Part shown: positions 10,313-62,538 of the stretch, one piece after another | Position numbering within the stretch: position 1 is the first letter of the stretch | Layout: the number at the start of each line of letters is the position of its first letter | From: Hyaloraphidium curvatum | Lineage: Eukaryota; Monoblepharomycota; Hyaloraphidiomycetes; Hyaloraphidiales; Hyaloraphidiaceae | Assembly: GCA_025558095.1 (NCBI GenBank) | Contig: JAIVFI010000024.1 | Location: 618,030 to 682,029 of the forward strand | Reading direction: 5' to 3' | DNA length: 64,000 bases | Notes under the pieces: generated by a model | Told to the model about the DNA's origin: nothing | Seen by the model: the letters and a program-made list of their open reading frames with translations, nothing else | Database searches by the model: none | Position numbers and translations under genes: made by a program

Positions 10313-10545
10313 GTCCGCAGGCTCGCAGTTTCCGTTTCCACGAATCCGTGTGCTCCGCCGCCGGTCGGCAGCCCGAGCCTTATCACTGCCCCGGCGTTCT
10401 CAAGTCCGACAGTAGAGACGGCCCCGACCGCGCCCCTTTCCCGGCCGCCCGGCACCGCGCTGCGGATTCCGTGCGTCCCCGTGTGGCGCCAGAAGAGTGT
10501 GTGTAATGAGGAGCTAGCAATCCCACCGTACACTTAGAAATCCCC

Positions 10546-43247: not shown

Positions 43248-43499
43248 GGTGAGGATTCGGATTCGGGGCTTGGGGGACCGGCGCGAAGGAACAAATCCTC
43301 GGGTCCCAAGTCCCCAAGTGGCTGTGCTGATTCCGACTGACTCCACTTTCCGTTTGCTGGGGATGGGGTCGAAATGGAAGCAAACGCGCAAGAAAGGCAA
43401 CGGAAACGTCGGCTTGTCGAGCGAATGACGTCTGGAATCGGTGCACCGCAGACCTGCTTTGGCTTGCCGGTCAAGCCTTGTGCCAAGTCAACCTGGCGG

Positions 43500-43561
43500 C
43501 AGACACCAGCAGAACAAAATGGACAAAAGTACGGATGAATGCTATTAGATCGTGTGCAGAT
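43500..43561 (+). repeat. 11-bp phased CRGAY array G
   Basis: CAGAC 43500, CAGAA 43510, TGGAC 43520, CGGAT 43532, TAGAT 43546, CAGAT 43557 (starts). Spacing is 10, 10, 12, 14, 11: looser than the other arrays. It begins 27 bp past the epimerase stop codon and lies upstream of the esterase start. Confidence 0.6.
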
Positions 43562-43587
43562 GGCACCAACAAGAGCAAGATCCACTC

Positions 43588-44591
43588 CTACAGCTTCGCC
43601 TTGGCGACGACGTCAGGGTTGAACGTGCGATACTCGCGGACCCAGCGTGCGATTCCGTCCACGAAGGAAGGGCGCCGCTGCCGCCATCCGAGGAGATTGG
43701 CGGCCTTGTGGGCGGGTGCGTACATGGCACGGGTGAGCATGGTCATGTTTGGCGGAGCGGGCGAGAAGGTGACGGCCGATTCTGTTTCGAGGGGCGAGAA
43801 TGAGCTAGTGGTGCACGAAGTGGACCAGCAGAACTACCTGGCAGACCAACGGCGCGAGCAATGGCGGCATAGCACGATCTACGACGCTCCGAGTTGAGGT
43901 TCGAGAGGTTGAAGGCCTGGCCTCGCACCACGTCCCCGTGCTGGGCAGCAAGAACGTAGCACTCGGCCAAATCGTCGACATGCACCGCCGAGACGGGTGC
44001 CTCGGGGTCGCCGTAGCCGGTGATCGTGCCCTTGAGCATCGCTTCGCGGATGAATCCGCCTAGCGGTCCTCCAGAGGCGCCGTAGACATAGCCCGGCCTG
44101 ATGACAATCCCGTTCACCTCGCCGTTAGCGAGGAGCTCCTTTTCGATCTCCCTGCGGCTAAGAATGCCAGGCCAGAGCCCTTGTCCGAGCTCGGACGTCT
44201 CCTCGACCGTGCGCTGAGCCAGTATGGTGTCCGCGTTGCCGAAGACCGCAAGGCCGCACGTGTAAATCAATGTTTTTCTGCCCGTGCCGACCTCCCTGGT
44301 CGTCTCGAGGGTGACGCGAAGGATCGCGTCAAACATGGCGCGGTGTTCCTCGGGCGGCGTCCTCGCGCTCCCGCTGCACATCACGACGCAGGAAGAGAGG
44401 GCTGCCGCGTGCCTCCATTTCGACACGTCCGTAACGGAGCAGATGATCGGGTTCCCCCCGGCCCGAGTGATTTCGTCCGCTTGCGAGTCGCGCCGTGCGA
44501 CGGCAAAGACCTCGTAACCCGCCGACGCAAAGGCCCGGACGACGGCCAGGCCGATGTAGCCCCCGGCTCCCAGGACGACGGCGTGCGGCAT
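43588..44591 (-). CDS. NAD(P)-dependent epimerase/dehydratase-like protein (extended SDR)
   Basis: The start MPHAVVLGAGGYIGLAVVRA carries the Rossmann GxGGxxG motif. Other SDR features are SCVVMCSGSARTP (cofactor strand), IYTCGLAVFGN and GIVIRPGYVYG (substrate loop); the usual YxxxK is not obvious, LSRREIEKELL standing in its place. A 56-bp intron (43782-43837) joins ARAVGLP-E to SAVTFSPAPPNMTMLTRAMY and the C-terminal helix ending VREYRTFNPDVVAKAKL, with stop at 43588. It probably acts on a nucleotide-sugar or small-molecule substrate in the cytosol. Its start codon is only 61 bp from that of the divergent gag-like ORF. Confidence 0.8.
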
Positions 44592-44652
44592 CGTTAGCAC
44601 GGCAAGGAGGGAACGGGGAGACAGTCTCTGAGAGTGGTCTGTTCGCGCGCTT

Positions 44653-46809
44653 ATGAAGCCGTCATTGCAAATGGACCCCCCTGACACAGGGCAGGGGCCC
44701 AATGATGCGGCCGCTCCCGTGGTCCTGCCTGATGGCAAGGTCTCCCCTGCGCTCGCCGCGGCCTCCTCGGAGGCGCTTGCGAATCCCGTCCACTCTTCCC
44801 ACGCTCCCGGCGTCGCTGCCTCTCCTCGCCTCCCTGGCGCGGCAGAGGAGCCCGCGCCGGCCCCCGCTGGTGCTACGGCTCAGCTGAAAGGTTCTAAGGA
44901 GGACGCTGCTGAATCGACCACTGAAATCCGCCCCGCGTCCGCCAACGGCGGCGCCCGGGAGGAGCCGGCTCCGCAGAATCGTCTCCCGAAAGCAACCGCC
45001 CCCGCCACGCGCCTGGGGTCTCGCTCTTTCGCCGCAGCAACGTCGCGCACCTCGCCCGACCGCCCGATTGTTCGTGTCACGGACGGCGCGATGGCGGAGC
45101 ATCTGGCTTCTGCCATGCCTTTCTCGGCGCCCACCAACTACGCCAAGCTCATCGATCGGGTGCAACCGCACGCCAACGGTCGGGGCTACACGCCGGCCTT
45201 CATTGGGCCTGTCCCCCACTGCCTCATCGACCTCAACGGTGTGCCAAAGGACCGACGGCGCGTCGTCGCCGAAGCCGTGGCGAAGGCGACCTTCCCCACC
45301 ACCGTCTTCACGACCGAGACGCGAGGCTACAACCCGCGTTACTCGCGACTGGACCTCTTCTGTGTTGTTGGTGCTGTCGACGGGGCAGACGCTATCAACG
45401 CCTTGGTGGAGCAGGGGGTGCTGGAGGTCAAGTTCCCAAACGGCCCGACGCGTCGGCTGCGCATCCACCCTGTCTTCAAGGACACGCACGCCGAGCTCAA
45501 GATCGGGCCCATGATCGTCCCTGGTTCGGTGCACGAGTGCCCGGACTGGTGGGCCCGCCTCTACGCGACTTTCCAGAACCACTATGGGGCCCCTTGCCAA
45601 GTCATTGAAGCGGCTCCCATCTCGGGCACCGACAGCAACGCCTTCTGGCGGGTCACTTTCGACGTCTCGCAGTGCGGGGTTGATGCCTTCTTTGACCGCG
45701 CAGCACGCATTGGCCCACCCTCGTACTGCTTCCTTGACTCGTGGGGGACACTCCTCCAGCACAAGCTCCTTCGCCCAGCTGTCCGCTATGACAGTAGCAA
45801 CGGACAGTGCGGCCACTGCAAGCGCACGGGCGGCCACGTCGGTGACGATGCCACGTGCACCAACTGTGCTTACTGCCCAGACGGTCTCAACCGCATGAAT
45901 CCCGGCGCCTTTGCCAGCCCGCAAGCACGCCGTGCGCACGAGGCGGACTGCATTCACAACCCGGCCAACGTACGGCTCTCTCCCCCAACGGTGGAGCCCG
46001 CCACGACCCCGCGGCTGCCCCCCCTGAGGGAAGAGGTCGTTCCTCCGCATCTGGCTTCCCCCACCGCCCCTGCGGCCGACGAGTGGCTTACAGCTGGGCC
46101 GTCCGGCAAGCGCGCCGGCTCTGCGCCCCCAGCTCTTGCCCAGCCAGTGGCCAAGGCGTCCCACAACAGGTTTTCGGCACTCGGTGGTGGTGGTGCCGGT
46201 GCTTTGGTCGATTGGGGGGAGTCTGACGCCGCCGAAAAGATGGATTTCCATGGTCTTCCCATTTTGGAGCCGGCTGACAAGGATGGGGACGAGGACATGG
46301 GTGGTGCCGACCAGCTGGCCGCTGAGAACGCCATCAGCAGTGCTGCACAGCAGGTTGCAGCCAATACCGCGCTGGAGGATCTGGAGCTTGCTGCTCCCGC
46401 AATGGAGGGCACGGAATCTGCGATGGAGGAGGATGCCACCGGCTCTGAGGCCTCGGGTGGAAACGACGCCGCCTCCGAAGCCTCTGCTGAGGGCGATGGT
46501 TCGAACTCGGAGGCACCAAGCGAAGACATGCACACGGCCGATGAGGCCGCTGGGGCATCCGCGGTTGGTGATCCTACGATGGCCCCAGGCCCCAAGCACG
46601 CAGGCAAGGGCCGTCCCGTGGAGGATGTGGCAGGGACAAACCCGGACAAGGTTGCCAAGCCGTATCAGCAAATCGACGTCAAATCCGCCAAAGCGGAACG
46701 GAAGGCCAAGGCGGCCGTTCGCAAGCTCGGCTCCCCCCAGGCCAAGGCCGCCTCCACGTCAACCGGATCCCTGCTGCCGGCTCCTGGCTCACCGTCCTTG
46801 AATGCCTAA
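44653..46809 (+). mobile_element. Gag-like ORF1 of a retroelement, RT not present
   Basis: 718 codons, intronless. A Pro/Ala-rich N-terminus (1-130) is followed by a conserved-looking core (YAKLIDRVQPHANGRGYTPA; VPHCLIDLNGVPKDRRRVVA; SAFWRVTF-type strands) and a Cys/His cluster, CGHCKRTGGHVGDDATCTNC followed by AYC (about 386-408), like the nucleic-acid-binding knuckles of non-LTR ORF1 proteins. The C-terminus is acidic and low complexity. The stop TAA overlaps an ATG (46802) opening a 128-codon frame, an arrangement used for ORF1-ORF2 coupling, but no RT follows. It could also be a domesticated gag. The call as retroelement ORF1 is by architecture, not by a recognised family. Confidence 0.55.
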
Positions 46810-47185
46810 AACACCACCAAGCAAGTGGCAACGCCGAGTAGTGGGCTGCTCTTCTCGGCGCCGAGCTCGTCCGGATACCTCCCGGGCGCGGTCAGCCCCT
46901 CCATCTTTTGCTGTTTTGCAGTCTTCACCGGTACGCCAACTACCACTATCTACAACGTCTCACCGAGTTCCGAGGCCGTTCGCGGCAGCAGGGGAGACTT
47001 CCGACATTGACCCCGCGTCCCCCGGGGCCCCTCGGCCAAATGCCGTGCCTAGCTTGGCCGAGGGTCACACTCTGCCCACGCCGCCCCGCGGCTCCTCCCG
47101 CTTGCCGGCACCAGCGGGGGGGAAAGGGGCGGCATGCTCGGAAGTATCTCCCTCCTCGTCATCGCAGATCTTGATCGCTGCCCTA
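46810..47185. other. Sequence after the gag-like ORF, no conserved gene
   Basis: A 128-codon Ser/Arg/Pro-rich frame (46802-47188) overlaps the ORF1 stop by a few bases and has no recognisable domain. It is perhaps the degenerate beginning of a lost ORF2. Confidence 0.35.
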
Positions 47186-47197
47186 TGAGAAATTTCC

Positions 47198-47433
47198 ATG
47201 GGAAAGCCCTGGGAAACAAATGGGAAAACCCGTCCCGCATGGGACTTGCATGGGAAAAGTGCTTGGACATGGGAAATCACATGGGCTGGCATGGGAATAT
47301 TCCATGGGGAGCCTAACCCCTAAGTCCGGAGAATGGGATTGGCCATGGGAATAGTATGTACCAGGCCGTCCAGACCCAGGTGGTTAGGGCTTGGAAGCAC
47401 AGGACATGGGCTGGACATGGGACGCCTCATGGG
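47198..47433 (+). repeat. Cluster of CATGGGA-type short repeats
   Basis: ATGGG occurs 13 times in about 235 bp (starts 47198, 47220, 47239, 47250, 47269, 47281, 47291, 47304, 47333, 47345, 47406, 47417, 47429), mostly as CATGGGA(A). Many intervals are 10-13 or about 20 bp. It lies just before array A. Confidence 0.8.
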
Positions 47434-47543
47434 ATCCCTGAGCGACAGTGCACGAACTCGAAGAGTATCGCCTTGTTCATGACGTTCACTCACTGGCATT
47501 ACCATCCTAGAGGGGCCGCAGGCTTCAGATGGATGCGCATTCA

Positions 47544-47665
47544 ATCCGTTCGCCATCTCATTGACATCCGTTTTGAACTCGTTTGAAATCTGTTTCATAT
47601 CCTTTTTTAGTCCGTTTTCTATCCGCTCGGGCATCCTCGCCCGTCTGCATGGATCCGCTCGTCCG
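47544..47665 (-). repeat. 11-bp phased CRGAY array A
   Basis: On the plus strand the motif reads RTCYG. Starts are 47544, 47555, 47566, 47577, 47588, 47599, 47610 and 47621, exactly 11 bp apart, then 47633, 47643, 47653 and 47661. This makes 12 units with A/T-rich spacers. The last units overlap the first possible start codon of the F-box gene (47649). Confidence 0.9.
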
Positions 47666-48809
47666 ATCGCAAGGTGGCGATCAGCCGAGGTCCGAACCGT
47701 TTCTCGGGTCCCGGATCTTGCCCACCGTGACCATGTCGGGACGCGCTCTTCGGAGCTGCCCACCGGAGGTTCTGAAGGAAATCGCGCGTTTCCTGGACCC
47801 TAATGCGCGAGTCGCGCTCGCGAGCACGGGCAAGGAGATCCGCGCCGCGGTTTTGGACGTGGCCTTGCGGAGCGTCCGACCCCCAAGCTCGCGCACAGCT
47901 GCCGACTACTTCGATTCGGTGGTGCACGAAGGCACGGAGGAACTTATTCATGTGGTCACGAGGCACTTGACACTGGATCCCCAAGTTCCTTTTGGCAACG
48001 ACCCCGCCGCCCTTCACCCTGAGCTTCAGTTCCTCAAGATAGCCCTGCCGCACCTCCACAGCCTCGCCATCGGCCTTAATCCCTCATTTCGCGCGCGAGA
48101 GCTGCGCCTTCTCCTCACAAGGCACGACCCCGCGGAGCACCTAAGGCAGCTCACCCTCACCAACGTCGACCTCGCCTTCCTTCCGTCCCTCGGGATGTTG
48201 GAAGTGGTTGTCTCCCGCTTGTCGTACCTGGAGATTGGCGTAACCGGGGGCGCTAAAGTCCTGAAAGGGGTTCTGGGATGCGTTGAGAAGGCGCTCTTCC
48301 ACGGTCTCGGGTCGTGGGGTCTCCAAACATCGGAGAGAGAGCTTGCTTGTGAAATGCCCACTGAAGTGGCGCGTCGCTTGACGACGCTGAAGGCCGGGCC
48401 GCGCGTTTTCAAGCAGGTCTGCAACGCTTGTGGCGATTCGGGGACGGAGCTTCGGAGGCTCGCACTTTCGGGGATCTCGGGCTGCCGGAAGCTACTACGG
48501 GTGCAGAAACACGTGTGGTCGCTCGCGTTGCCGACCATGGAGTCTGACAACTACGCGAGGTTTACGCTTCCCAGGAACGTGGAGTACGTGGAGATCCAGA
48601 CAATAATCGTGTCATGCCGCAGTCCCATGCACGAGATTCCGGACAGCCACGTGCTTCCTGGCATTATGTCTTTGCGGAAGCTCAAGCGCGTGGAGGTGTT
48701 AGGGTTCGCGGTCAAGACGCTATCCGACCGAGCTTTGAAGCAGCGTGACCTCGAAACTCAGTGGTGGCAGGTGACTCTTCCGGCGCGTTTGCGGAATCGC
48801 ACTGTTTGA
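47649..48809 (+). CDS. F-box protein with leucine-rich C-terminal region
   Basis: From MDPLVRSQGGDQPRSEPFLG (or MSGRALRS at 47733) the frame has an F-box-like helix set near the start, SCPPEVLKEIARFLDPNARV followed by ALASTGKEIRAAV. The rest has leucine-rich, irregular LRR-like segments (LPHLHSLAIGLNP, LRQLTLTNVDLAFLPSLGML, LRRLALSGISGCRKLL, LRKLKRVEVLGF). F-box proteins link substrates to SCF ubiquitin ligases through Skp1. No introns. The gene lies between arrays A and B. The start is uncertain because array A overlaps the upstream Met. Confidence 0.65.
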   Translation: MDPLVRSQGGDQPRSEPFLGSRILPTVTMSGRALRSCPPEVLKEIARFLDPNARVALASTGKEIRAAVLDVALRSVRPPSSRTAADYFDSVVHEGTEELIHVVTRHLTLDPQVPFGNDPAALHPELQFLKIALPHLHSLAIGLNPSFRARELRLLLTRHDPAEHLRQLTLTNVDLAFLPSLGMLEVVVSRLSYLEIGVTGGAKVLKGVLGCVEKALFHGLGSWGLQTSERELACEMPTEVARRLTTLKAGPRVFKQVCNACGDSGTELRRLALSGISGCRKLLRVQKHVWSLALPTMESDNYARFTLPRNVEYVEIQTIIVSCRSPMHEIPDSHVLPGIMSLRKLKRVEVLGFAVKTLSDRALKQRDLETQWWQVTLPARLRNRTV

Positions 48810-48869
48810 AGTTGTCGGCATGTGATTGGGTGCAACGTAGTGTTTTCCAAGCGCAGTTGTGATAGAAAG

Positions 48870-48963
48870 CGAACATGTGCGGATCGCGAAACAGAATCTT
48901 TCCGGATCGCATACAGACAACAAGGTCGACAACGAACAGAAACCCTCAGGAAGTCATGCAGAT
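48870..48963 (+). repeat. 11-bp phased CRGAY array B
   Basis: Motif-like units end at 48874 (CGAAC), 48884 (CGGAT), 48896 (CAGAA), 48907 (CGGAT), 48918 (CAGAC), 48930 (TCGAC), 48941 (CAGAA) and 48963 (CAGAT), so spacing is 10-12 bp with one double step. The array starts about 65 bp after the F-box stop codon. Confidence 0.7.
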
Positions 48964-49017
48964 CAATAGTGTGACACAAACGATAGCTCGCCATTCGTTC
49001 CGACATCTGGCCGACAC

Positions 49018-50271
49018 ATGAAAGAGTGTAATCATGGGCTTCAGTGGACTCACAACTGTGCGGGACGGGTCGGCGCAGTTTTGGAAAAAACACAAACACC
49101 TCCCATGCCCATGCAGAGCCCCAGGGAAACAGCGACCATGGCAAAGACGCTGAACAGTTCAACTGAGCGCTCACGAGTGCTGCGGGCACGGCGGGCCGAG
49201 GAGCGCCGCCAGGTGCTGGAAAAGAAGCGCCTTCAGCAGCGCGCCCGCCGCGTGGTCGCACGGGGCATCTCGCCGCCCGTGGTCTCGGCCGACGGGACTG
49301 CCAGCGACACGGAAAATGGGGCTTCGACGGACACGCAGACGCCGGAGGCCTGGGATGGCCATCGAGCGTCTCCGGCCCACCAATTGCCCCGTTGCGCCCG
49401 CGCTCCTGGTGGCCGGGACCCGCGCGCTGTGCTGCAGGGACCTGCGGACGACCCCCGCCTGGTTGCGTTGCCTGCTGTCAACGAAGCCGGAGGCATCGGA
49501 TTCGGACTTTACGTCGCCTGTCCGTTGTGCCCAATGGCGCACTTCGACAGCTCACCGACGGCCACGTGGCGCACTAGTGCCGCCGAGGCGCAGCTGATCT
49601 TGCAGCGGTCCCTTTGTGGGCGGTCTGCCGCAGGCACCGCGTTCCGCAAGGGCGACGTGCTGGGCACCTACAAAGGAACCACGTGTGCGAAGAGCTCATG
49701 CGGGGACTATGTTCTTTTCATTCAAGCTTTGGGATTTTCGGTTGACGGGGCCAATCGAGGTTCCATCCTGCGCTTCGCCAATTATGCACAGGACCATCAG
49801 AAGCGCAATGCGGTGTTTTTGGGCAAGCCGGTCAAGGTGGAGAACCTTTGGGGGGCCCGAGTGGTCGCCTCGCGCAACATTTCCTACCATGACGAGGTTC
49901 TGCTTAACTATGCGTCGCCCGGTTTCATTGGGAACTCCATGGTCGCGCGGCTGGAACACAAACTTGACGAGAAGCCCACGCCGTGCAGGTTGCCGACACC
50001 GGTGGTGAAGGTACACCGAGTCCGGGACCCTGGTGACGGGTTCGGCCTGGAGCTCAACGTCACGCGTCAGAGCGCGTACGAAGGATGGGCACGCAGTGGA
50101 CGGCGCACCCGCAAACCGAAGCGGATCTGGATCCGCGAGAGCGAGGTTCCGGAGTCCGACGCGGAATCGCGAAGAGTGATCTCCGGCTTTCTGAAGGGGC
50201 ACCGGCCCAAGCAGCCGACTCGCGCAACATCCGCGAGGTTGTTAGGGAAGGCGAAGAAGATCGATGTATAG
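49018..50271 (+). CDS. SET-domain-like protein
   Basis: Starts are possible at 49018, 49105 (MPMQSPRETATMAKTLNSST) or 49138, all in frame. A basic helix (RARRAEERRQVLEKKRLQQR) precedes a low-complexity stretch. A SET-like fold follows: AFRKGDVLGTYKGTTC, GSILRFANYAQDHQKRNAVF and ARVVASRNISYHDEVLLNYA, the order of SET motifs I, III and IV (RFxNHxxxxNA; GEExxxxY). The usual NHS is NYAQDH here, so S-adenosylmethionine binding and methyltransferase activity are uncertain. The C-terminus is basic (RRTRKPKRIWIRESEV). No introns. It lies between arrays B and C and may be carried by a mobile element. Confidence 0.6.
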   Translation: MKECNHGLQWTHNCAGRVGAVLEKTQTPPMPMQSPRETATMAKTLNSSTERSRVLRARRAEERRQVLEKKRLQQRARRVVARGISPPVVSADGTASDTENGASTDTQTPEAWDGHRASPAHQLPRCARAPGGRDPRAVLQGPADDPRLVALPAVNEAGGIGFGLYVACPLCPMAHFDSSPTATWRTSAAEAQLILQRSLCGRSAAGTAFRKGDVLGTYKGTTCAKSSCGDYVLFIQALGFSVDGANRGSILRFANYAQDHQKRNAVFLGKPVKVENLWGARVVASRNISYHDEVLLNYASPGFIGNSMVARLEHKLDEKPTPCRLPTPVVKVHRVRDPGDGFGLELNVTRQSAYEGWARSGRRTRKPKRIWIRESEVPESDAESRRVISGFLKGHRPKQPTRATSARLLGKAKKIDV

Positions 50272-50286
50272 GTTCTTCTTCCTAAA

Positions 50287-50346
50287 GTCTGCTTGCCTTC
50301 CGCATGCAGTCCGCTTTCTGTCCGCATCAACTCTGCATCACATCTA
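50287..50346 (-). repeat. 11-bp phased CRGAY array C
   Basis: Plus-strand units GTCTG 50287, TTCCG 50298, GTCCG 50309, GTCCG 50320, CTCTG 50331 and ATCTA 50342 are all exactly 11 bp apart. The array starts 16 bp after the SET gene stop codon. Confidence 0.88.
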
Positions 50347-50477
50347 CTTGGCGTTAGGTCGCCGGCGTCCAAACTAACCACCTCTCTGTGCACGTGCCTT
50401 TGGAGGTGTCTCTTAGAGACCCGTGGAGGTTCCAAAGAACCGATTCGGAAGGCGAGGGCGACGCAAAGTACGAATTG

Positions 50478-52449: not shown

Positions 52450-52534
52450 TGAACCGTTTTGTTGGGTGGCGAAGAGACCTACACTGCTGGTCGATGGGCT
52501 CCAAGGGAGTGAGGCGATCAGTGAAAACAGGGTT

Positions 52535-52614
52535 AGGAGTGAAAGCGGACTACATGCAGATCGCAAACAGACACAACTAGGACAAAACGGACTACAGTCA
52601 GACGGATAGCGGAG
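52535..52614 (+). repeat. 11-bp phased CRGAY array D
   Basis: Units end at 52539 (GGAG), 52550 (CGGAC), 52561 (CAGAT), 52572 (CAGAC), 52583 (AGGAC), 52592 (CGGAC), 52603 (CAGAC) and 52614 (CGGAG). All steps are 11 bp except one of 9 bp followed by 11 again. The array ends 50 bp beyond the Tnp2 stop codon. Confidence 0.88.
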
Positions 52615-52663
52615 CAACGTAGCTGCGATATAGATTCCGCCATAGGCGTTCGGCAGCACATCG

Positions 52664-55600
52664 TCACACCGAATCCGGCTTCTTGATCCGCTTTTTGAGT
52701 TCCCTAGTCTTTTGTTTCCTCGCCGCACCCAGAACCTTCTCCCTTGCACGAGCTTCTGGACTCACATAATCCCGGGGATCAATCATCCAGTTGAGGTCGA
52801 GAATGTAATGCCATTCCCTGGCCATCGGGTCCGAACCCCAGTCGGTGGGCTCCAACGCGGTCGAAGCCACGGTCGGGTCACCTACCCAGCGCCTCAAAAG
52901 CCCGACGAGGCGGTCCAGGCAGGTGACAGGCACTAACATATGTTCCATGTGAGAGCCGTCTCTCTGAAACTGGAAGTATTTGATTCCCCACCCCGCCGCC
53001 GCGTCGAAACCGGCCGCCTTGATGACCGACATCCACGCAAAGGCATGCTCCTCGCCCTGCACTTCGTGCACGATGTAGTAATGCACGAAACCAAAACGTT
53101 CGACTCCAGGATGATCCGGATCGTCGAACGCAGCCATGTGGTTGAGGCGCCGTGTCCGGTTGATTGCCTGGACCCGGTGAGACACCAAAGGGAGCCGTCT
53201 CGCGGGCTTCCCCGAAGACATCACCGAGCCAAAAGTCGCCTTGCCCGGTAGTTCAAGCCTGGCAAACTGGCGAAAGGCGCGGGAGATGTCGTCTTTGGCA
53301 AGATACCCCCCCCAGGTGCCACCCTTTCGGTAGTATCGGAGGAGCGCTTTGATCTGAACCTTTTTGAGGCCCTACCGCCGTGTGCGGGGACGTTGTTTGG
53401 ATGCTTAGTGCCCCAGAAAACGGTTATTGCAACCAACCAACCTCTTCTTCCCGGTGTACCCGGTACGGCCATCGCAATTCGAAGCCTGTGCCGGTGTAGA
53501 TCTTTCCGAACTGTTTCCGCTGGAGCTTTCGCTGGTCGACGAAGGCTGTCTCCATTCGAGGGTCCATCTTCACCAGCTCAAGCCGAGTTTGGCCCTGAAC
53601 TTTGCCGGCCATGTCCGCTATGGGCGCCCGGCGGTTGTCGACCAATTGTTGCAAAACGTTGATCTTTCGCTCTGTTTGGAATTGGGACGTTGCCCACGGA
53701 GCCCCGTTACAATCGACCCGCTCCGCAAAATGCAGGAACGTGTGCAGATTGTACGTGCAGACGTCACCCATGACCTCCTCGGATCGATCATAGCACGTCC
53801 TGAGCAGCAGAGCGAGGTGGGGGCGGCGGGTGCGTGTTACTGGTAATACTAAATGCTGAGAATCACGCACCCACCCCTCGCGCCAGAGAACGTATCTTAA
53901 GCAAGCCTCGTGCAAAAGACCGGTATCCACGCGGTGCTTCGCCGTGAGCTGTCCAATTCGAACAAGCCACGCGATGCCCTCAAAGTCCTCGGGGAGCAGG
54001 CGATCATGGAGGAGGGGAACATAGTACAGTTTCAAGAGGGTGAACCACTCCTCCGTCTTGTACCCATTCTCGTGGACCAAGCTGCGGGGAACGCGCCCGA
54101 AACAGCTTGGGAGGAGAAGCGCCGAAGCCACGATATCATGGTCCATCTCCTCGATCTGACGAGGTGTCAGACGGCATCTGGCGGATGGAGTGTCCCTGGA
54201 GTTGACGGCCGTGTTGTACTCCTGCGTCGTCATCCCTTGGCAGTGGTGCGAGGAATCCGTGATGTGGGTGGGTTTGACGTTGATCTTGTGCTTCTTGGCC
54301 ATCTCCTTCGCGAACTTTTTCCATTCTTTCTTCCCCATCTTCGGCTTCAGTGTTCTCTGGTAAAGGCGTTGGACGTTGCCAGCAACCTGGTGCATCCGGT
54401 CGTACGCGAGGCAGTGCGGAAGCCGCATCGCGCCGAACGCAGTGCGCGTGACCGGGAGACCCTGATTCGAGAAGCAAATGTCGAACACGGAGCGACGCAT
54501 GATACCTGCGGTACCAGCAGCAGCAGGAGGCGAGCGCCAAGTCAGGTACGCGAGCTTATCTCGCCGCCGCCGGTGCACGCACCCGTTTCCTTCTGGATCT
54601 TGTCAATTGCCGCTTTGGGAGCCTCAAGTCGGGCGTACGTCGAAGCATACGTCTCGACAGTGTACATCGGAAGGTTCTCCGGGTCGTAGTCGATCCGGCC
54701 TCCACGCTTCCCGTAGGCCTCACTCAGCTTCACGTTTGCCACGTCCGGCAGGTGAAGGCACGGGCACCGCCCGTACCCAACCAATCCACAGAACATACAA
54801 GATACGGTCGCGTTGTGTCCCCGAGACCCTGCCATCTTCTTGATGTGCGGCGCATCTGCTTGCACCATGTACGCGTGGCCGCGCATAGTAAAAGTGACCC
54901 CGTCGGACGCATCCTTGACCCCGGGCACACCTTCTGCCAGCTGCTGCAGCTCCTCCCGCAGCGGGCGGATGACCGACTCGTGATCCCACTTCATCCCACC
55001 GGGGAGGAGCATGCAGAGGTGCTGACCACCATCAACAGTTCGGATGCCGGGCGGGAGGTTGGATATCTTGGCAAGCACGGGTTCGAACGTGTTCTTCGCC
55101 CTGTTATTGTGGTCGGATCAGTCCATCCACACGGATTGGATGGTAGGATGAACTCACTGCTTGAACATTTCGGCGGGATCACCGCTGATCTCGAGCCAGA
55201 CGGTGCGGGGATCGAGATTTCCAGAGTCGTCATTCGCGAATCCTTCGTCGATCAGTCGCTGGAACTCCGTTCCGTCAAATACGTCCCCAACGACACGGCC
55301 TGCTGCTGGGCGCTGCTGTGACGGCTGTGACTGCGGCTGCGGCTGCAGTTTCTGCTTTCCCTTCCCTTGTTTTCCCCCCTGACGCGCATGTTCCTGCTCT
55401 CGCTCGGCAGCAGCCTGCTGCTGTTCGATCTCGTGCTGCAACCGCCCCAACATCTCGGTGAAATAGCCGTACCACCATTTGAGTTCTTTAGCCCGGCCCA
55501 AGTGGCCGAACATGGCTCGCAGGACGGGGATTATGGGGAAGTAGAAAGCGTACTTGTGTGCTGTACCAGTGTCTCCACGGCGGTCGGAAGGATGCCTGAG

Positions 55601-56656
55601 GTATCGGGCAGCTTGGCAGATGGGGCAGGCAACGGCCTTGGCCAAGTCCATGCCACTCCTGCTGTCAATGCCATGGAAAAGTACGCATCCGTTGCGGCAA
55701 ACATGATGTCCTGTGGGTAGCGCAATAAGGAGCCGATCACGCACGGTAGAGAGAGTGGTCTCACTCTCGTAAGCATAACCCCCCGAGAGTGCGGCAAGCC
55801 GCACCCCGGCCATGTAGCGGGACACCGATGCATCACCGAGAAGGTTGGTCATGAAGTCGGTGTAATGGTCTTCTGTCCCTTTGTATTCCACGTGAAGCCG
55901 TTCCGCGGTGAGAAATCGTATTACGTGCTCGTCGGACTTGAAGCTCGGGTGAGCCGTCTGGATGGAACCGCTGCCCTGGAAAGAGAAGAAAAAGTCCTTG
56001 GCATTGTCCGCCGCTGCTTCCTCCTCCCTTTTCCGGTGTTCCATCCGCCGCCGATGCTCCTCTTCGTTTGCCTTCCTCCAGTCCTCCTGGGATTCCTCAA
56101 TTCCTTGAAGAAAGGCCTCATCATCGCTTCCGTAGTCCGATTCTGCGAAATCCGACTCGTGGAAATCGTTCAGTTCCGCGTCGGGTTCCGTGTCTGAGTC
56201 TGATTCCAGTGCAGAGTCGGATTCCGATTCATGTGCAGATCCGAAGGCAGAGTCCGAAGCAGACGTCTCGGATCCACTATCCGCAAAGTCGGAACCAGCC
56301 GTCTCGTTTGTCTGGCCCGCAGGCGTGGTCACGTCCGGAGCCTTTTGCGCCGGATCATGGATGGGAGAAGGGTCGGCGACCTCGCCGGGGGGCGACGGTG
56401 CAAAGTCATCAGCAGATGCACCCCACGTAGAGGCTGTGAGGACTCTTCGCTCGGCGGAATCGTTGGTATAGTGTTTCCGTGAAAACCACGCTTTCGCCGA
56501 GAAGTGCGTCGCCAGGAGATCACCAAGGGCCGGATCCCCGTCCGCGAGGGAGCCCCACTCGTGGCACACGCCTCTCTCGTTCACGTGTTTCTTGATGGTT
56601 CTATTCAGATGGGCATGCGTGCCACGACAGCCTGAACAAGGGCACCGGCTTCTCAT
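52664..56656 (-). mobile_element. CACTA/EnSpm-type Tnp2 transposase gene (Transposase_21 plus DUF4218 regions)
   Basis: From MRSRCPCSGCRGTHAHLNRT the first exon carries Cys-rich text, an acidic Ser/Asp/Glu tract and a region with HVCRNGCVLF and VACPICQAARYL. Next come DVFDGTEFQRLIDEGF and, across an intron near 55150-55080, LAKISNLPPGIRTVDGGQHL, LREELQQLAEGVPGV and VSCMFCGLVGYGRCPCLHLP, the text pattern of the Tnp2 family. Further exons give RLPHCLAYDRMHQVAGNVQR, YNLHTFLHFAERVDCNGAPW plus SQFQTERKINVLQQL (DUF4218-like), then KVQIKALLRYYRKGG and a C-terminal exon ending at 52664. Several short introns are needed. Terminal inverted repeats were not found, and activity cannot be judged. Arrays D and E flank it on both sides. 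Confidence 0.8.
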
Positions 56657-56770
56657 CGGTATCAGCGCACAGAAAAGGGGTCGGATTGTGTGCCTCGAGA
56701 AAACTAGCGCCGGCCGACGAGAATGTGAAACCTAGCCTCAAACTGGTAGGTTATGGGATTGGGAAGCAAA

Positions 56771-56842
56771 GCGGATGGCAAGTAGATAGTGAGCAGATCA
56801 AAAGCGGACTCCATGCGGACACAAAACGGTATCGCAGCGGAT
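56771..56842 (+). repeat. 11-bp phased CRGAY array E
   Basis: Units end at 56776 (CGGAT), 56787 (TAGAT), 56798 (CAGAT), 56809 (CGGAC), 56820 (CGGAC), 56831 (CGGTA) and 56842 (CGGAT): six consecutive steps of exactly 11 bp. It lies 115 bp upstream of the Tnp2 start codon. Confidence 0.92.
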
Positions 56843-56890
56843 CGCGTCTTCGCGGGGCTCGCCAAACAGACTCTGGTTCTCTGGAAAACT

Positions 56891-57581
56891 ATGTCATCCG
56901 AAACCTCGTCACCGGCGGCGGTCGGCCCGGCCGAGCGTCGCCGGCTCCGCCGCGAAGCCGCTGGCAAGACCGCGGGCGCGCGTTCCGGCGACGAAGAGGA
57001 CGCGGAACCGCCGTCGAAACGGCGGCTCAGGAAAAAGGAGACGGCTCCCGACGACACGCAGACGGACCTTGAGCTGGCGTAATTTTCCCGACTTGCGCCG
57101 AACGTCTGCTGCGCTTGGTGGCAACGCCCCCAAGGAGGCCGCCCGACCGGCAAGCAACGGCAGCCGCGGCTCGAAAGCGGCAGTTCCAGGACCGGCCGGG
57201 CCGCGGCGCTCTGATCAACGCGGCCGGGCGGTGGCCACGGTGAGCCGATGGCTGGATCTGGCAGCGGTCGACGACGACGCGGGACCCGGCGCGTCCCCGG
57301 GTGATTCGGCCTACGAAGACACCCACGAACTGGACACGTCCTCCCCCGGAGAGGTGGGCTCCCCGTGGCGGAACTCGCCCTCGTTCCACCGCGAGCTGGA
57401 TGCTCGCAGGGCAAAGGAGGAGGCGAAAAGAACGCGGGACGATCAACGGCAGGCGCGTTGGGGGCGCGGAAGCCGCTCCACACGAGGCGCGAGAGCCTTT
57501 GGCACCGGCGCCCCGCCGTACCTCCCCTCTTCCGATGGAATCGATCGGATCTCATCTTCTGCGGCAAGCAGCCTCGATTGA
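56891..57581 (+). CDS. Basic low-complexity orphan, exon structure uncertain
   Basis: MSSETSSPAAVGPAERRRLR continues as a Lys/Arg/Glu-rich frame to a stop at 57082. A second frame, 57069-57581, continues with similar composition (DLAAVDDDAGPGASPGDSAY; SFHRELDARRAKEEAKRTRD). They may be exons of one gene coding a charged nuclear protein. No domain is recognised, and either frame could be spurious. Confidence 0.35.
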
Positions 57582-57928
57582 AAGGGAACCCGCTGCGCCG
57601 GGCACGCCAGCCCTCGTTGGGGCGCAGCACCCGCATCGACGGACAGGTTGGCGAGCCACGCACGGTGGCCATCGGCATAGGCAAAGCAAGCTAAGCTACA
57701 TTGTTGGTTATACTCCCTGTACAAATAGGATTACCCAACAAGTTTCGTCGGACGTGTTCTGGGCGCCATCTGCTGTGATTCCACGTCGCGTTGCCCCGCA
57801 TCGGTTCGGTAAACGCTGCCACCAGAAGCCGGACGACCATGGTAGCCAACCGAAAGCATCTCCCGGATTGGGCACACCCTCCTGCGAATCAGCAAGACGA
57901 TTGCAGAGGTGCCAAGGGGGAGCCTACC
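57582..57928. other. Intergenic, no gene seen
   Basis: About 350 bp at the 3' end of the ULP1-like gene. It contains an imperfect inverted repeat around 57700-57742 (ttgttggttatac and ttacccaacaag). No CRGAY array was found here. Confidence 0.35.
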
Positions 57929-58831
57929 TCAGATGATGTCCAACACTATGTCCTTTACCAAATGGTGCCTGTACTTGGGAACTTCGCTCTGCCTGATCCC
58001 AGCGCCTTTGTACCATGCCTCCAGTCTCTTTTGAACGATTGCTGCATTCCACGGACCCCAAGTGTGGGGCCCTCCTCCTTCCAAGGTGAGCGATGCGAAC
58101 AGCTCGACGTGGGCCATAGCAAACACCATGCATGCAGACCCGTCGAGCTGCTTGGCGTCGCCGACGTCCAAATCAATGTCCAAGTACGATTCCTCCTTCG
58201 CCACCTCGTAGCCCTCGATGCGGAGGATCGAGTGCACCACCTGTTCGACGCCTCTGGCATCCCGAAGTACCCCTGCCCGTGAACCAGACCGCGAGAGGAG
58301 ATCCAAAGCGAACGTGAAGGTGCCCACTCGTCCCGTGCCGGCAGTTGGGTCGAAGAAGTGGGCCATCGACGCGACAAAGATCCAATGGGACCTTTCCTTG
58401 ACAAAGAGCGGCGCGAGGAACATCCAGCAGCGTCGTGAAATGGCGAAGCGCGTTTCGCTGCGCACATGCTTCTCTTCGCGGCCGACGCCGTGCTCGTATC
58501 CCTTCGCGCGCATGTTCTGGCGGACGTATCCCTCGACGCCCACCTTCCGCCACGCTTGGTAAGCGTTGCCGGGGTTCCCCGCGGAGATGTCGACGGCAAA
58601 ACGGGTCAACTGCCCGTCGAGAAACACCACTCCGGGAAAGTACTGGGCCCTGCGCTCGAGCCACCGTTGGTAGGCTTCGTCGCCTAGCCAGGTCTCGGGC
58701 TCGAGGGGCCGCACGAGCTCCGAAACCCCAGGCTCCCGGGTTACCTTCGTGAAAACGAATCCAGTCACTGCGCCCCTTTCGTCGGCACCTAGTCCCCGAT
58801 CCCAGGGTTCGTTCCACCGGAAGTTCGCCAT
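57929..58831 (-). CDS. ULP1-like (C48 family) cysteine protease
   Basis: 300 residues, intronless, from MANFRWNEPWDRGLGADERG. The C-terminal two thirds fit a SUMO-protease fold: ETWLGDEAYQRWLERRAQY (substrate-side helix), SHWIFVASMAHFFDP with catalytic His at about 149 and Asp at about 161, and KQLDGSACMVFAMAHVELFA with oxyanion Gln at about 228 and nucleophile Cys at about 234. Order and spacing match C48 peptidases, which remove SUMO or SUMO-like modifiers. ULP1-like genes are often carried by transposable elements in plants and fungi, and this one lies about 1.3 kb from a Tnp2 transposase gene, so a cargo role is plausible but not shown. The triad looks intact. Confidence 0.72.
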   Translation of the reverse strand: MANFRWNEPWDRGLGADERGAVTGFVFTKVTREPGVSELVRPLEPETWLGDEAYQRWLERRAQYFPGVVFLDGQLTRFAVDISAGNPGNAYQAWRKVGVEGYVRQNMRAKGYEHGVGREEKHVRSETRFAISRRCWMFLAPLFVKERSHWIFVASMAHFFDPTAGTGRVGTFTFALDLLSRSGSRAGVLRDARGVEQVVHSILRIEGYEVAKEESYLDIDLDVGDAKQLDGSACMVFAMAHVELFASLTLEGGGPHTWGPWNAAIVQKRLEAWYKGAGIRQSEVPKYRHHLVKDIVLDII

Positions 58832-58865
58832 GGCCCCAGATGGTACGTCTCGAGAACCCGACCTT

Positions 58866-60660
58866 AAGAATTTGATGTGTCGTTCGTTCGCTGCTCATCC
58901 CTTTTCGTTCCCTTTCCATTCTGCTTCTTTCCCGCAACCGGCTTCTTTCCCGCAACCGGCTTCTTCCTCCGCTCGCGCTCGACGCGATGCCCCCCAAGGG
59001 TGCCGCGCCCGCGCCGGAAGCAACGACGCCGCCGCAGCGGCGCCCGAGGCCGCGGGTCCGGGACGTGGTCACCCCGGGTGCCGGGTGCCTTCTCCTGCAG
59101 CGGGTACGCGCGCGAGACTCGCCTCCGGCTGCCACTGCAGTCTTTGAACATGCGTCTATACGGGTGCGCAGACCAACCGGCCCCCACGTCGCCCAGTCGA
59201 AAAGCCAAGTCCAAGCCGCATGCGAACGCGTCGCTCGCGGTCAAGGCGAACGCGGCCCAAGCAGAAGAAGGCCAAGTCCAATCCTCGGGAGGGTAAGCCA
59301 CGGCCAACAACGGCGTTGCGCGCCGTCTAACGCCTTGTCACGACCGGCAGAGGACCCGTCAGGCGGGCCGCGCGAGCCGACGGAGCCGGCCAACGCGGTC
59401 AAGAAGACGAAGGGCAAGGGCAAGCAGAGAGAGGGTTAGCCACGCCCACAGCAACGGCGTCGCGCGCTGTCTAACGCCTTTGTCACGACCGGCAGAGGAG
59501 CCCTCCGGCGGCCAGGACGACCCGAGGATCAGGCCGTCCCGGCGGACGAACCGGCGAACGCGCTCGACCTCTTAAAAGCGACGCTGGCGAGGCAGCTCGC
59601 TAGCAAAGAAGTTGAACCCTGCGACGTTCCCGAAGCGGCCGGCGGCGGCCCGCACCCGGACATCGTTGGCCTGTTCGACTACGTGGGTGTCTCCGAGATT
59701 CCCCAACGAAGCTAGGCCACCACTGATTTCGCTGCTAGCTCGCCGAAATCACTACAGACTTCGACACCAAGGCTTACGCGGCATGGATGAAGACCGAGTT
59801 CAAGCACAAGCGAGTCCGGTTGGGCAGGTCTGGATGAACGGAGGGCGAAAGCCATCTCGCAGGTGGGCTTCAGTAAGCGGTGCCTTCCGGCGGCGGCCAA
59901 TGACCTTCCCTTGCAGCACATCGACAACTACAAGAAGGAGCGCAGCAGCAAAGTCATCGAAGAGCTGGACCTGCTATACAAGGCCGCTGATAGTCGCGAG
60001 ATAGTCAGCAGAAAGTATGGGGGCCAGCGGTATTTCAAGGCGCCCGGTGGTCCGTGCGGGCGGGCCGGTGCGCCCCATCGTTATGGACTTTTTCAAGGAT
60101 GTGGGTGTTCCACGCACGGACCCTTGGACCGGAGCGGGGCCATGATTGACTCCGCTGCCAGCTCCTCGAGCTCACGGACGATGCCGAGATGGCCTCTTGG
60201 CTGCAAGACGTCGTGAGGCAAGTTGGCGTCGGGCGAGACGGTGGTTTCGGGGGTGGACGACGACCAGCAGAAGGCCATCTCGAGGTGGTTTTCTGGGCAG
60301 CGTCCACCGCCACGGGCGGCCACTGACTCCGTTTCCTTGCAGCACATCAAGGTCTACAAGAAGCGGCTGTTGGATGACGACCGGCAGCTCCCCGGCCCCC
60401 CGCCGGAGGAGGACTCCGAGGCGCGCGCCGCGACGCCCCCGGTCGTCGCCCCGCAGCCGCCGCCGGAGGACGACGGGCAGCTCCCCGACCCCCGCCGGAG
60501 GGGGACTCCGAGGACGAGATGAAGAGCTCCGCGGGCCTGCTGTGGCAGAGCCGCGGAAGCGGGGCCGTGGCAAAGGAGGGCGGGGGAGGGGACGGGCCTT
60601 TGAGACTAAAGCCAAGAAGCCGCGTGTCCGGGGTAGGCTTACCTCGAACGGCGCCGAGGA
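58866..60660 (+). pseudogene. Degenerate multi-exon orphan with duplicated exon-intron units
   Basis: Two duplications are visible. First, an intron at 59293-59349 and another at 59437-59495 are near copies (both end TCTAACGCC...CACGACCGGCAG), each followed by an exon starting with EDPSGG or EEPSGG. Second, the acceptors near 59916 and 60339 (CCTTGCAG) are followed by HIDNYKKERS and HIKVYKKRLL, and upstream text is also paired (FDYVGVSEI and DFFKDVGVP; KAYAAWMKTEFK and EMASWLQDVVRQ). After EEPSGGQDDP the frame must change to reach DQAVPADEPANALDLLKATL, so at least one indel is likely. No start codon or family could be assigned. Confidence 0.4.
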
Positions 60661-61121
60661 CGGACGCATCTAACAGCATTTACCGTCCGGTGGACAGATG
60701 TGTCGTCTGCCGGCAGCGCCCCGAAGCCCCCAAGGCGACGAGCACGCGCACGATCCGGAGCCGGCGTCCAAGAAGGACAAGGCCAAGGGCAAGGACAAGC
60801 GGACGCACGAGCAGTCCGAGGGATGAACACAAGACGACGAGTAACGCGCCCTTTCCGGGGCCGGCATCCAGAAGCACAGGCCAAGGGCAAGAACTTGAGA
60901 TTCCTCGAACTCAACCCGACCGTAAGTCCTCGTCCCTCCGGCACGCTTTGGCAAGACCGCTCATGCAGGAGACGTTCTCCGTTGTAGACGGACCAGCTGC
61001 AAACCCACGTGCAGTCGCTTGATATCCCGTACCGGCTCCTCCTCAAACCGCAGATCAATGCATCGCCGCTCGGGTTCTTCGCCTTGAAGAAGGCGACGCC
61101 CGACAAGCCCGACGCCAAGGA

Positions 61122-61156
<35 letters not shown>

Positions 61157-62243
61157 ACGGGGACGGGGGCAACGGGGACGGGGTCGGGGATGGAGATGGG
61201 GTCGAGGAGCACGTTTGCTTCGTGGTCGGCTGCCAGACGCGGTACAGTGGAACCAGCCAGTTCCACGCCCACCTCCTGTCGGCACACGGGATCAGCTCAC
61301 GGGACATTCTCCGGTCGTGGAGGGTGAACTTCGGCGTTGTCGAGCGCACCGGAAGGGTTGGTTGGGACACTTGCTATCGATCTGGCGTTCTTGACCAGTC
61401 GCGTGGCGCATCAGGAGAGCGAGCTGACCAAGCTGAAAGCAGAAGATGTCCCTGAGTGGTGCTATAAGGGCTGTCACGCCGTCGCAGGCATGTCTCCGTG
61501 GGCCGCGCATCACGACCCGGCCCGCTTGACTGACAACTTGGCGCCCGAAGGCGGAGCTCCTGACGGCGGCGCTCGACATCACCGATCACGTTGCTCTGGA
61601 CGCGAGCAGCAAGGTCGTGTACACCATCGACAAGTTCGACAAGCCCGTGGACCCGCCGTTGCCATCCAAGGTCGTTGTCCGGCTACCGAACATCGAGGAG
61701 ACGGACGGGCGAGTCTTCTTTCGCCTCGTGCTGACGCACCATATGACCATCGAAAAGGTTATGGGTTTCCTGCTTTGCACCGGCGGACCTCCGCATTGAC
61801 GCGAATACTTCCAGATCGTCGAGATCAACGAGACCGAGGTCGCTTTGATTGGGATGGTCACATACCCTGGCGCACTTCTACATCTCGCGAACGAATTCGT
61901 CGCCAAGTACGACACCCCGAGCGCCCGCCCGACGCGACCCCGGTGCAGGTAGAGGTTGGGCTCGACTACGTGTTCAACGATTCATTCGCGACCCACTGCT
62001 TCCGAGTACGTCATAGCGCGTTGGTGCCTCACCCGGCAAGTTTCCTAACCCCTTTCCCAGGTCACAATTACCGCCGAGACAAGCTGGCTATTCCCGGGCT
62101 TCGAAGTCGACCTCGAGGAGCCGGCGTTCCGGGTGGTAAATGCCAAAGGGCTCAGTATTGTTAGCTTTCGCGGGCGACGGAAAGCAACGAGGAATGAGGG
62201 ACGATCGCTTGCGCGTGCGATCAACTTGTACGAGGATGATTAG
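60520..62243 (+). CDS. Multi-exon orphan with a C2H2-like finger; 5' end uncertain
   Basis: Upstream exons are Lys/Arg-rich (RGRAFETKAKKPRVRG; intron with CTAAC and acceptor near 60700; PEPASKKDKAKGKDKRTHEQ). Around 61005-61340 the text is QSLDIPYRLLLKPQINASPL, a Gly/Asp run, then CFVVGCQTRYSGTSQFHAHL plus LSAH, a C-x4-C-x12-H-x4-H finger. Later exons read TLAIDLAFLTSRVAHQESEL; VVYTIDKFDKPVDPPLPSKV; VEINETEVALIGMVTYPGAL; and, after a good intron (donor GTACGTC near 62010, branch CCTAACC, acceptor near 62060), VTITAETSWLFPGFEVDLEE, ending at TAG 62241-62243. These exons are beta-rich and look folded. Function is unknown. It may be the 3' half of the degenerate gene before it. Confidence 0.5.
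61130..61170 (+). repeat. 6-bp tandem repeat (ggggac) coding Gly-Asp
   Basis: About six units of ggggac give a Gly/Asp run just before the C2H2-like finger of the orphan gene. Confidence 0.85.
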
Positions 62244-62290
62244 GTGTCTTTTCGTACCGTGCAATGGCAAGTAGACGGTCTTTCCTTTGT

Positions 62291-62360
62291 CCGACCGAAA
62301 CAGAACTAATGTGGACTGAAAGCAGATGCAAAGTGGACCAGTGGCAGCTAGCAAACGGAC
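62291..62360 (+). repeat. 11-bp phased CRGAY array F
   Basis: Units start at 62291 (CCGAC), 62301 (CAGAA), 62312 (TGGAC), 62323 (CAGAT), 62334 (TGGAC), 62345 (CAGCT) and 62356 (CGGAC): one step of 10 bp, then five of exactly 11. It begins 48 bp after the stop codon of the upstream orphan gene. Confidence 0.9.
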
Positions 62361-62538
62361 CTGGCCCCCGAATCGTTTATCCAAAGCGAGATGAACGTAG
62401 ACATACTTGATTGGCCGGAAAGGACGCCTTTCACCTCCCGCACTTCCTCTTACGGATCCCGAATTCGGCGAATTGGCGCGCGGCGCTTTGGCGTGAGTCG
62501 CGCAAACCGTCCGCGCGACCACACATCCATATCCCGGA

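What the first reader, a model, noticed from the sequence alone, without database searches (positions are those of the whole stretch)
43500..62360. Seven arrays of a short CRGAY motif repeated every 11 bp at gene boundaries
A five-base motif (CRGAY, or RTCYG on the other strand) recurs once per 11 bp in seven places: 43500-43561, 47544-47665, 48870-48963, 50287-50346, 52535-52614, 56771-56842 and 62291-62360. The spacers between motifs are not conserved, so this is not an ordinary minisatellite: only the motif and its helical phase are kept. The best runs have five to seven consecutive steps of exactly 11 bp. None was found by eye in the first 43 kb. A row of sites on one face of the helix suggests cooperative binding of one protein, such as a transposase or an array-binding factor, or a role in transcript ends. 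This is the best candidate for an undescribed system here.
Basis: partly seen in the sequence, partly recalled or inferred. Interest (0 to 1): 0.88.

Follow-up and report, generated by a model that had tools for sequence, protein, structure and literature searches.

The report
Motif arrays between a transposon's genes
A 19.4-kb jumping gene in what appears to be the fungus Hyaloraphidium carries, in the gaps between its genes and near both its ends, rows of one short DNA motif repeated every 11 bases, which look like landing strips for a single DNA-binding protein that controls or protects the whole element.

Summary
Six of the seven reported arrays are confirmed; the one at 43500 is not. Two more exist: a weak one at 58884-58927, and the longest, which by collinearity lies about 2 kb beyond the contig end and is seen in the two other copies. 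All eight lie inside one 19,402-bp DNA transposon with perfect 12-bp terminal inverted repeats, a tnp2-like transposase (just over the Pfam cut-off) and subterminal CATGGG repeats. The genome holds three copies (contigs C22, C24, C26); a database protein name points to Hyaloraphidium curvatum. The unit is roughly [ACG]A[AT][AG]C[AG]GA[CT]NN; 53 of 61 steps are exactly 11 bp. With my gene limits (seven genes, partly set by hand) each of eight noncoding intervals holds exactly one array, including a 3'-to-3' interval. A database gene model would instead put one array in an intron. No comparable array was found in 104,822 flanking host bases; the whole genome was not scanned. Best reading: one protein, probably element-encoded, coats these arrays to control or protect the element, working like VANC of Arabidopsis VANDAL transposons or TNPA of Spm, without shown homology. 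Binding, the protein and any effect are inferred.

The parts
47181..64000 (+). Transposon copy on contig C24, cut off by the contig end; the full element is 19,402 bp in C26:94687-114088
   Evidence: copies 99.6% (C22) and 99.8% (C26) identical; 12-bp terminal inverted repeat, 4 exact hits in the genome, all at ends of these copies
47181..47192 (+). Left terminal inverted repeat CCCTATGAGAAA
   Evidence: perfect 12-bp match to the reverse complement of the right end in C26
47197..47433 (+). Left subterminal zone, 11 exact CATGGG repeats; 15 inverted ones lie in the last 359 bp of the C26 copy
   Evidence: counts and positions; spacing
47531..47661 (-). Array A1, 12 units, between left end and gene 1
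   Evidence: profile chain score 69.1; held-out 59.4
48866..48965 (+). Array A2, 9 units, between genes 1 and 2
   Evidence: score 33.1; held-out 25.7
50274..50350 (-). Array A3, 7 units, between the 3' ends of genes 2 and 3
   Evidence: score 51.2; held-out 46.9
52542..52637 (+). Array A4, 9 units, between the start of gene 3 and the end of gene 4; in an intron if the database model P0006 is right
   Evidence: score 47.0; held-out 40.8; P0006
56757..56844 (+). Array A5, 8 units, 100 bp upstream of the transposase start
   Evidence: score 53.5; held-out 50.4
58884..58927 (-). Array A6, 4 units (weak), in the divergent interval of genes 5 and 6
   Evidence: score 18.2; held-out 16.2, above 300 of 300 shuffles of its surroundings
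62297..62362 (+). Array A7, 6 units, between genes 6 and 7
   Evidence: score 38.8; held-out 37.2
47733..48809 (+). Gene 1, 358 aa, F-box-like N terminus (weak); another in-frame start at 47649
   Evidence: ORF; Pfam F-box 12.7 bits, below cut-off; model start
49018..50271 (+). Gene 2, 417 aa, SET-like (weak by Pfam; pattern by eye); model start 49105
   Evidence: ORF; Pfam SET 12.6 bits, below cut-off
50478..52449 (-). Gene 3, several exons, no known domain; two model pieces joined by hand
   Evidence: model pieces 52449-51339 and 51074-50478; joined in the database model P0006
52664..56656 (-). Gene 4, transposase with tnp2 domain; 1237 aa in the spliced model
   Evidence: PF02992 28.7 bits on my hand-spliced 1043-aa model, cut-off 28.6; splice model
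57929..58831 (-). Gene 5, 300 aa; by eye H-W...D...Q...C as in Ulp1-type proteases
   Evidence: ORF; no Pfam, PDB or outside database relative; single-sequence fold uninformative, pLDDT 32.6
58987..62243 (+). Gene 6, multi-exon, 772 aa from the model start (equivalent of 59151); one C2H2-like finger by eye; candidate array-binding protein
   Evidence: splice model on the C26 copy; earlier ATG at 58987 chosen by hand
62539..64000 (+). Gene 7, continues beyond the window (model end at the equivalent of 65023 in the C26 copy, coding-like frame on to about 65911); no known domain
   Evidence: ORF and splice model

Best explanation
The arrays are tandem binding sites, each unit 11 bp, for one sequence-specific DNA-binding protein that recognises about [ACG]A[AT][AG]C[AG]GA[CT]. 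The element keeps one array in each noncoding interval so that the protein, most likely made by the element itself (gene 6, with a finger, or gene 7, are my candidates), coats every gene boundary. This coordinates expression of the element's genes and keeps host silencing off them. Transposase binding itself most likely uses the separate CATGGG zones at the ends. Shown: the arrays, their register, their absence from the host DNA I could scan, and the one-per-interval layout under my gene limits. Inferred: that a protein binds, which protein, and the outcome.
For: Eight arrays with 69 units, 53 of 61 steps exactly 11 bp. With my gene limits all 8 fall in the noncoding 18% of the element and in 8 different intervals of 8: 0 of 200,000 random placements put all eight in intergenic DNA, and given intergenic placement 11 of 200,000 hit eight different intervals. 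Arrays do not resemble each other beyond the unit (best shared three-unit stretch, p 0.12 against shuffled unit order), as expected if motif and register are what is kept. Best chain in 104,822 host bases is 9.5, against 18.2 for the weakest array. All 10 distinct places outside the copies that match three perfect CRGAY at 11 bp were rescored; best chain in those loci 11.8. Cytosine methylation of the element is plausible: of 16 polarised C-to-T changes private to the C22 copy 11 are at CpG, 32% expected, p 0.003, a test chosen after seeing the data, and the genome has DNA-methylase matches (10 stretches over cut-off, some of them parts of one gene or interrupted). VANC proteins bind short motifs in tandem arrays in noncoding regions of their own transposons (passages of PMC5735166 and PMC10398659).
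Against: No binding protein, no expression or methylation data. Between the C22 and C26 copies the arrays are not better conserved but more variable: 7 events in 756 bp against 35 in 15,863 genic and 10 in 2,671 other noncoding bases (p 0.004 against all the rest, 0.07 against other noncoding). One C22 change hits a core base and two one-base length differences shift the register. Only three near-identical copies were found, so conservation over time cannot be measured. Array orientation relative to genes is not consistent. Gene limits are my own: I joined two model pieces into gene 3, dropped a weak model at 64288-64839 on the - strand that overlaps gene 7, and set some starts and one end by hand; the database model P0006 joins genes 4 and 3, which would put A4 in an intron and leave seven intervals with one array each.
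Confidence: 0.5

Rival explanations
1. The arrays are ordinary promoter or enhancer clusters for a host transcription factor; the element carries them so that each gene has a promoter.
For: With the starts I chose, 7 of 7 genes have an array 52 to 176 bp upstream; genes 5 and 6 share A6. With the model's own starts it is 5 of 7 within 200 bp: gene 1 then overlaps A1 and gene 6 is 223 bp away.
Against: A3 lies between two 3' ends and A8 between the last gene and the terminus; 104,822 host bases have no chain above 9.5 (promoters there were not counted).
Confidence: 0.2
2. The arrays are extra sites for the transposition machinery, like TNPA sites of Spm, used to fold or synapse a 19-kb element.
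For: The two longest arrays, A1 and A8, lie just inside the CATGGG zones at both ends and point outward, in inverted orientation. TNPA recognises subterminal repeats (passages of PMC2613891). CATGGG repeats, too, show 11-12 bp spacing.
Against: Six more arrays are internal; in the CACTA passages that I read the repeats are confined to the ends.
Confidence: 0.15
3. The arrays are decayed minisatellites that arose by slippage and have no function.
For: A8 contains a 22-bp tandem duplication; arrays vary more between copies than other DNA; A3 and A4 share an inverted 37-nt stretch of 81%.
Against: Core columns are kept while spacer columns 0, 9 and 10 agree at about chance within and between arrays; eight minisatellites of one motif, one per interval, are improbable.
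Confidence: 0.1
4. The alternation of A-rich and GC-rich parts positions or excludes nucleosomes at gene boundaries without a specific protein.
For: Units alternate A-rich and CRGA parts; arrays are 44 to 154 bp.
Against: The signal is a specific sequence with an 11.0-bp step, not the roughly 10-bp AA/TT phasing of nucleosomal DNA (recalled).
Confidence: 0.05

Closest known systems
VANC anti-silencing proteins and their target arrays in Arabidopsis VANDAL transposons (passages of PMC5735166, PMC10398659)
   Same: Short motif repeated in tandem in noncoding regions of a multi-gene DNA transposon; arrays that change fast; host that probably methylates cytosines
   Different: Another transposase type and another motif; nearly strict 11-bp register and one array per interval here; no VANC relative looked for and no binding shown
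Spm/En-type CACTA transposons with TNPA sites, for example the 20.5-kb soybean Tgmt* (passages of PMC2613891)
   Same: tnp2 transposase, large size, subterminal repeats, possibly a separate DNA-binding protein
   Different: Ends are CCCTATGAG, not CACTA; no target duplication seen; a second kind of array also lies at internal gene boundaries
parC centromere of plasmid R1 bound by ParR (passage of PMC9426499; cooperativity recalled)
   Same: Row of 11-bp direct repeats flanking a promoter, read by a plasmid-encoded protein that needs at least two repeats
   Different: Bacterial, one site per plasmid, no relation of proteins; only a model of how an 11-bp array may be read

Membership tests
EnSpm/CACTA DNA transposons | tnp2 (Transposase_21) transposase | tested here: met
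   28.7 bits against a cut-off of 28.6 on my hand-spliced 1043-aa model, so only just; that model keeps 11 residues which the database model and splice out. Transpos_assoc 17.1 bits, below cut-off. Unspliced, 22.9 and 24.4 bits, below cut-off
EnSpm/CACTA DNA transposons | Terminal inverted repeats that begin CACTA | tested here: not met
   ends are CCCTATGAGAAA
EnSpm/CACTA DNA transposons | Target duplication of about 3 bp | tested here: inconclusive
   the only copy with both flanks has CTC on the left and CTG on the right
EnSpm/CACTA DNA transposons | Subterminal short repeats | tested here: met
   11 CATGGG in the left 253 bp, 15 CCCATG in the right 359 bp
VANC/VANDAL-type anti-silencing | Motif arrays in noncoding regions of the element | tested here: met
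   8 of 8 arrays in noncoding intervals under my gene limits; 7 of 8 and one intronic under the fused database model
VANC/VANDAL-type anti-silencing | VANC-related protein encoded by the element | not tested
   no VANC sequence was compared; the spliced proteins of genes 3, 6 and 7 were not scanned whole (searches took pieces)
VANC/VANDAL-type anti-silencing | Binding of the protein to the motif and loss of methylation | not testable with these tools
   needs experiments

The most novel reading that the evidence does not exclude
A fungal DNA transposon with its own element-wide chromatin or regulon system: a self-encoded protein that assembles on 11-bp arrays placed at every gene boundary and so marks the whole 19-kb element as active against host silencing. 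It would be a sequence-specific anti-silencing system outside plants, evolved independently of VANC.
Probability: 0.3. Interest if true: 0.78.

Novelty: new variant of a known kind. Interest (0 to 1): 0.6.

Why it matters
Large transposons must express several genes from one compact piece of DNA while the host tries to silence it. Here nearly every noncoding interval carries the same phased landing strip, which predicts one regulator for the whole element. That is directly testable, and it would show whether the array-plus-protein strategy known from VANDAL elements of plants has arisen again in early-diverging fungi.

Tried and rejected
Array at 43500: rejected, see observation check. A chain at 56208-56266 (score 13.5): rejected, it lies in transposase coding sequence with 12-bp steps; its five units are nevertheless among the 74 units of the profile. 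Other step sizes: with the preferred step set to 9, 10, 12 or 13 the array chains still ran mostly at 11 (the program allowed two bases either side of the preferred step). Arrays as copies of each other: not supported; a 22-bp superperiod depends on A8 (p 0.02 with it, 0.18 without). A phage: no near match of window 43300-51000 in the phage collection; no virus hallmark family turned up among the proteins and pieces scanned with Pfam, and not all spliced proteins were scanned. RNA families: no match at gathering score in the window. Relatives elsewhere: protein searches with the transposase, gene 5 and gene 2 found only this genome's own proteins (for the first and third only the 7,993 and 7,995 candidates sharing most words were scored). 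Sequence comparison of genes 2 and 5 with solved structures: nothing. Literature: nothing on arrays of this kind in searches (two unrelated papers; none); one search (Hyaloraphidium and transposon) listed one paper on another subject; one search (Hyaloraphidium and genome) found 50 papers of which I saw 15 listed, nearly all on mitochondrial genomes, none opened. PMC12730594 was searched for six terms and gave one passage, not on this matter.
Full report
What is there. The window is the right end of contig C24 (bases 618030-682029 of 682,029) of a 31.9-Mb genome in 55 contigs. A database protein on a contig of the same length, 682,029 bases, bears the name Hyaloraphidium curvatum, a fungus of the Monoblepharomycota; I take that as the organism. 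From window position 47181 to the contig end the sequence recurs at 99.6% identity in C22:687045 onward and, reversed, at 99.8% in C26. The C26 copy is complete: 19,402 bp with a perfect 12-bp terminal inverted repeat CCCTATGAGAAA. That repeat occurs four times in the genome, all at ends of these copies. The C22 copy lacks the last 66 bp and is capped by (TTAGG)n telomere repeats. Left flanks differ in all three copies, as expected of a mobile element; in C26, the only copy with both flanks, no clear target duplication is seen (CTC against CTG).

The element. It encodes a transposase whose spliced product matches Transposase_21 (tnp2) at 28.7 bits, just over the curated cut-off of 28.6 (single exons stay below). 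Eleven exact CATGGG lie in the first 253 bp and fifteen in inverted orientation in the last 359 bp, with many spacings of 11-12 bp; I read this as the subterminal repeats of the transposase (inference). I joined two of them into gene 3, as the database model P0006 does, and dropped one weak model (64288-64839, minus, score 10.4) that overlaps gene 7; this leaves seven genes. P0006, which lacks the first half of the transposase, goes further and joins genes 4 and 3. Domain calls for genes 1 (F-box-like) and 2 (SET-like) are below Pfam cut-offs; gene 5 is Ulp1-like by eye only, and gene 6 has one C2H2-like finger by eye. Pieces of genes 2, 4 and 7 were found only in the three copies. Searches of a database of about 5.8 billion proteins with genes 4, 5 and 2 found nothing outside this genome, within that tool's limited sensitivity.

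The arrays. A profile learned from 74 units (69 in the eight arrays, 5 in a coding chain later rejected) has 6.6 bits per 11-bp unit, nearly all in eight columns, A-[AT]-[AG]-C-[AG]-G-A-[CT]. Of 61 steps between units 53 are exactly 11, four 10, three 12 and one 9. The arrays have 4 to 14 units. To limit circularity each was scored with a profile trained on the other seven: 8 of 8 beat 300 of 300 shuffles of their surroundings, A6 by the smallest margin. Genome-wide, three perfect CRGAY at 11-bp steps give 28 hits against 3 for the reversed pattern; 16 are in element copies, the other 12 fall at 10 places. All 10 were rescored; the best chain in those 3-kb loci is 11.8, away from the pattern match, and the next 10.5. 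So 12 outside hits against 3 in the control is a mild excess that I did not explain further.

Layout. With the gene limits the element has eight noncoding intervals, 18% of its length, and each holds exactly one array: left end to gene 1; 3'-5'; 3'-3'; 5'-3'; upstream of the transposase; divergent 5'-5' (the weak A6); 3'-5'; last gene to right end. Random placement does not produce this. Caveats: A1 overlaps by 13 bp an alternative start of gene 1; the 1.27-kb interval before the transposase may hide another small gene, in which case one interval of nine lacks an array; under the fused model P0006 there are seven intervals with one array each, and A4 is intronic.

Function. The arrays share the unit and the register, not the spacers or the order of units, which points to a protein that reads each unit and touches its neighbour. 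Promoter function alone does not explain A3 and A8; transcript-end function alone does not explain A1, A5 and A6. A factor that must be present at all noncoding DNA of the element explains all eight. VANC proteins of VANDAL transposons do this: they bind short motifs in tandem arrays in noncoding regions and remove silencing marks (passages of PMC5735166 and PMC10398659). For cytosine methylation here there is indirect support: 11 of 16 polarised C-to-T changes private to the C22 copy are at CpG (p 0.003, tested after seeing the changes), and the genome has DNA-methylase matches. Against strong constraint: the arrays differ more between the C22 and C26 copies than the rest of the element (7 events in 756 bp). 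Fast change is also what the VANC papers report, but it fits neutral repeats as well. ParR of plasmid R1 needs at least two 11-bp repeats (passage of PMC9426499), which shows that such a register can be read by a protein; no relation is implied.

Verdict. One of seven places falls away and two are added. I file it as a new variant of the known strategy of transposon-encoded factors with arrays of short sites; the element itself is tnp2-bearing but not a CACTA element by its ends. I found no description of it in print in searches of the held library. The claim of an anti-silencing system is the bold reading, at about 0.3.

Noticed in passing
C22 right end; also C1-C5: Telomere repeat is (TTAGG)n, the insect type (recalled), in a fungus: 687 overlapping matches of six units in the genome; those listed lie in one tight stretch each at high coordinates of C1-C5 (their contig lengths were not seen), and one such run ends C22 and caps the truncated transposon copy.
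   Followed up: partly
window 10500-12811: Stretch of 2.3 kb repeated at 99.8% in C26:90257-92568, about 2 kb from the C26 copy of the transposon.
   Followed up: no
window 59081-61922: Many single-base indels private to the C24 copy in gene 6, near the contig end; they look like assembly errors rather than mutations.
   Followed up: partly
window 41631-43400: Esterase gene (CE2_N and GDSL domains) with a tail of about 120-bp repeats, cysteine-rich by eye.
   Followed up: no
window 46850-47180: The DNA just before the insertion resembles, by eye, the right flank of the C26 copy, so both copies may have landed in one retroelement family; the 718-aa open frame at 44653-46809 has no Pfam match.
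   Followed up: no
C26 copy, about the equivalent of window 65850: The last coding-like frame near the right end contains a PCNA-binding-like motif QQNSITDYF (motif recalled).
   Followed up: no
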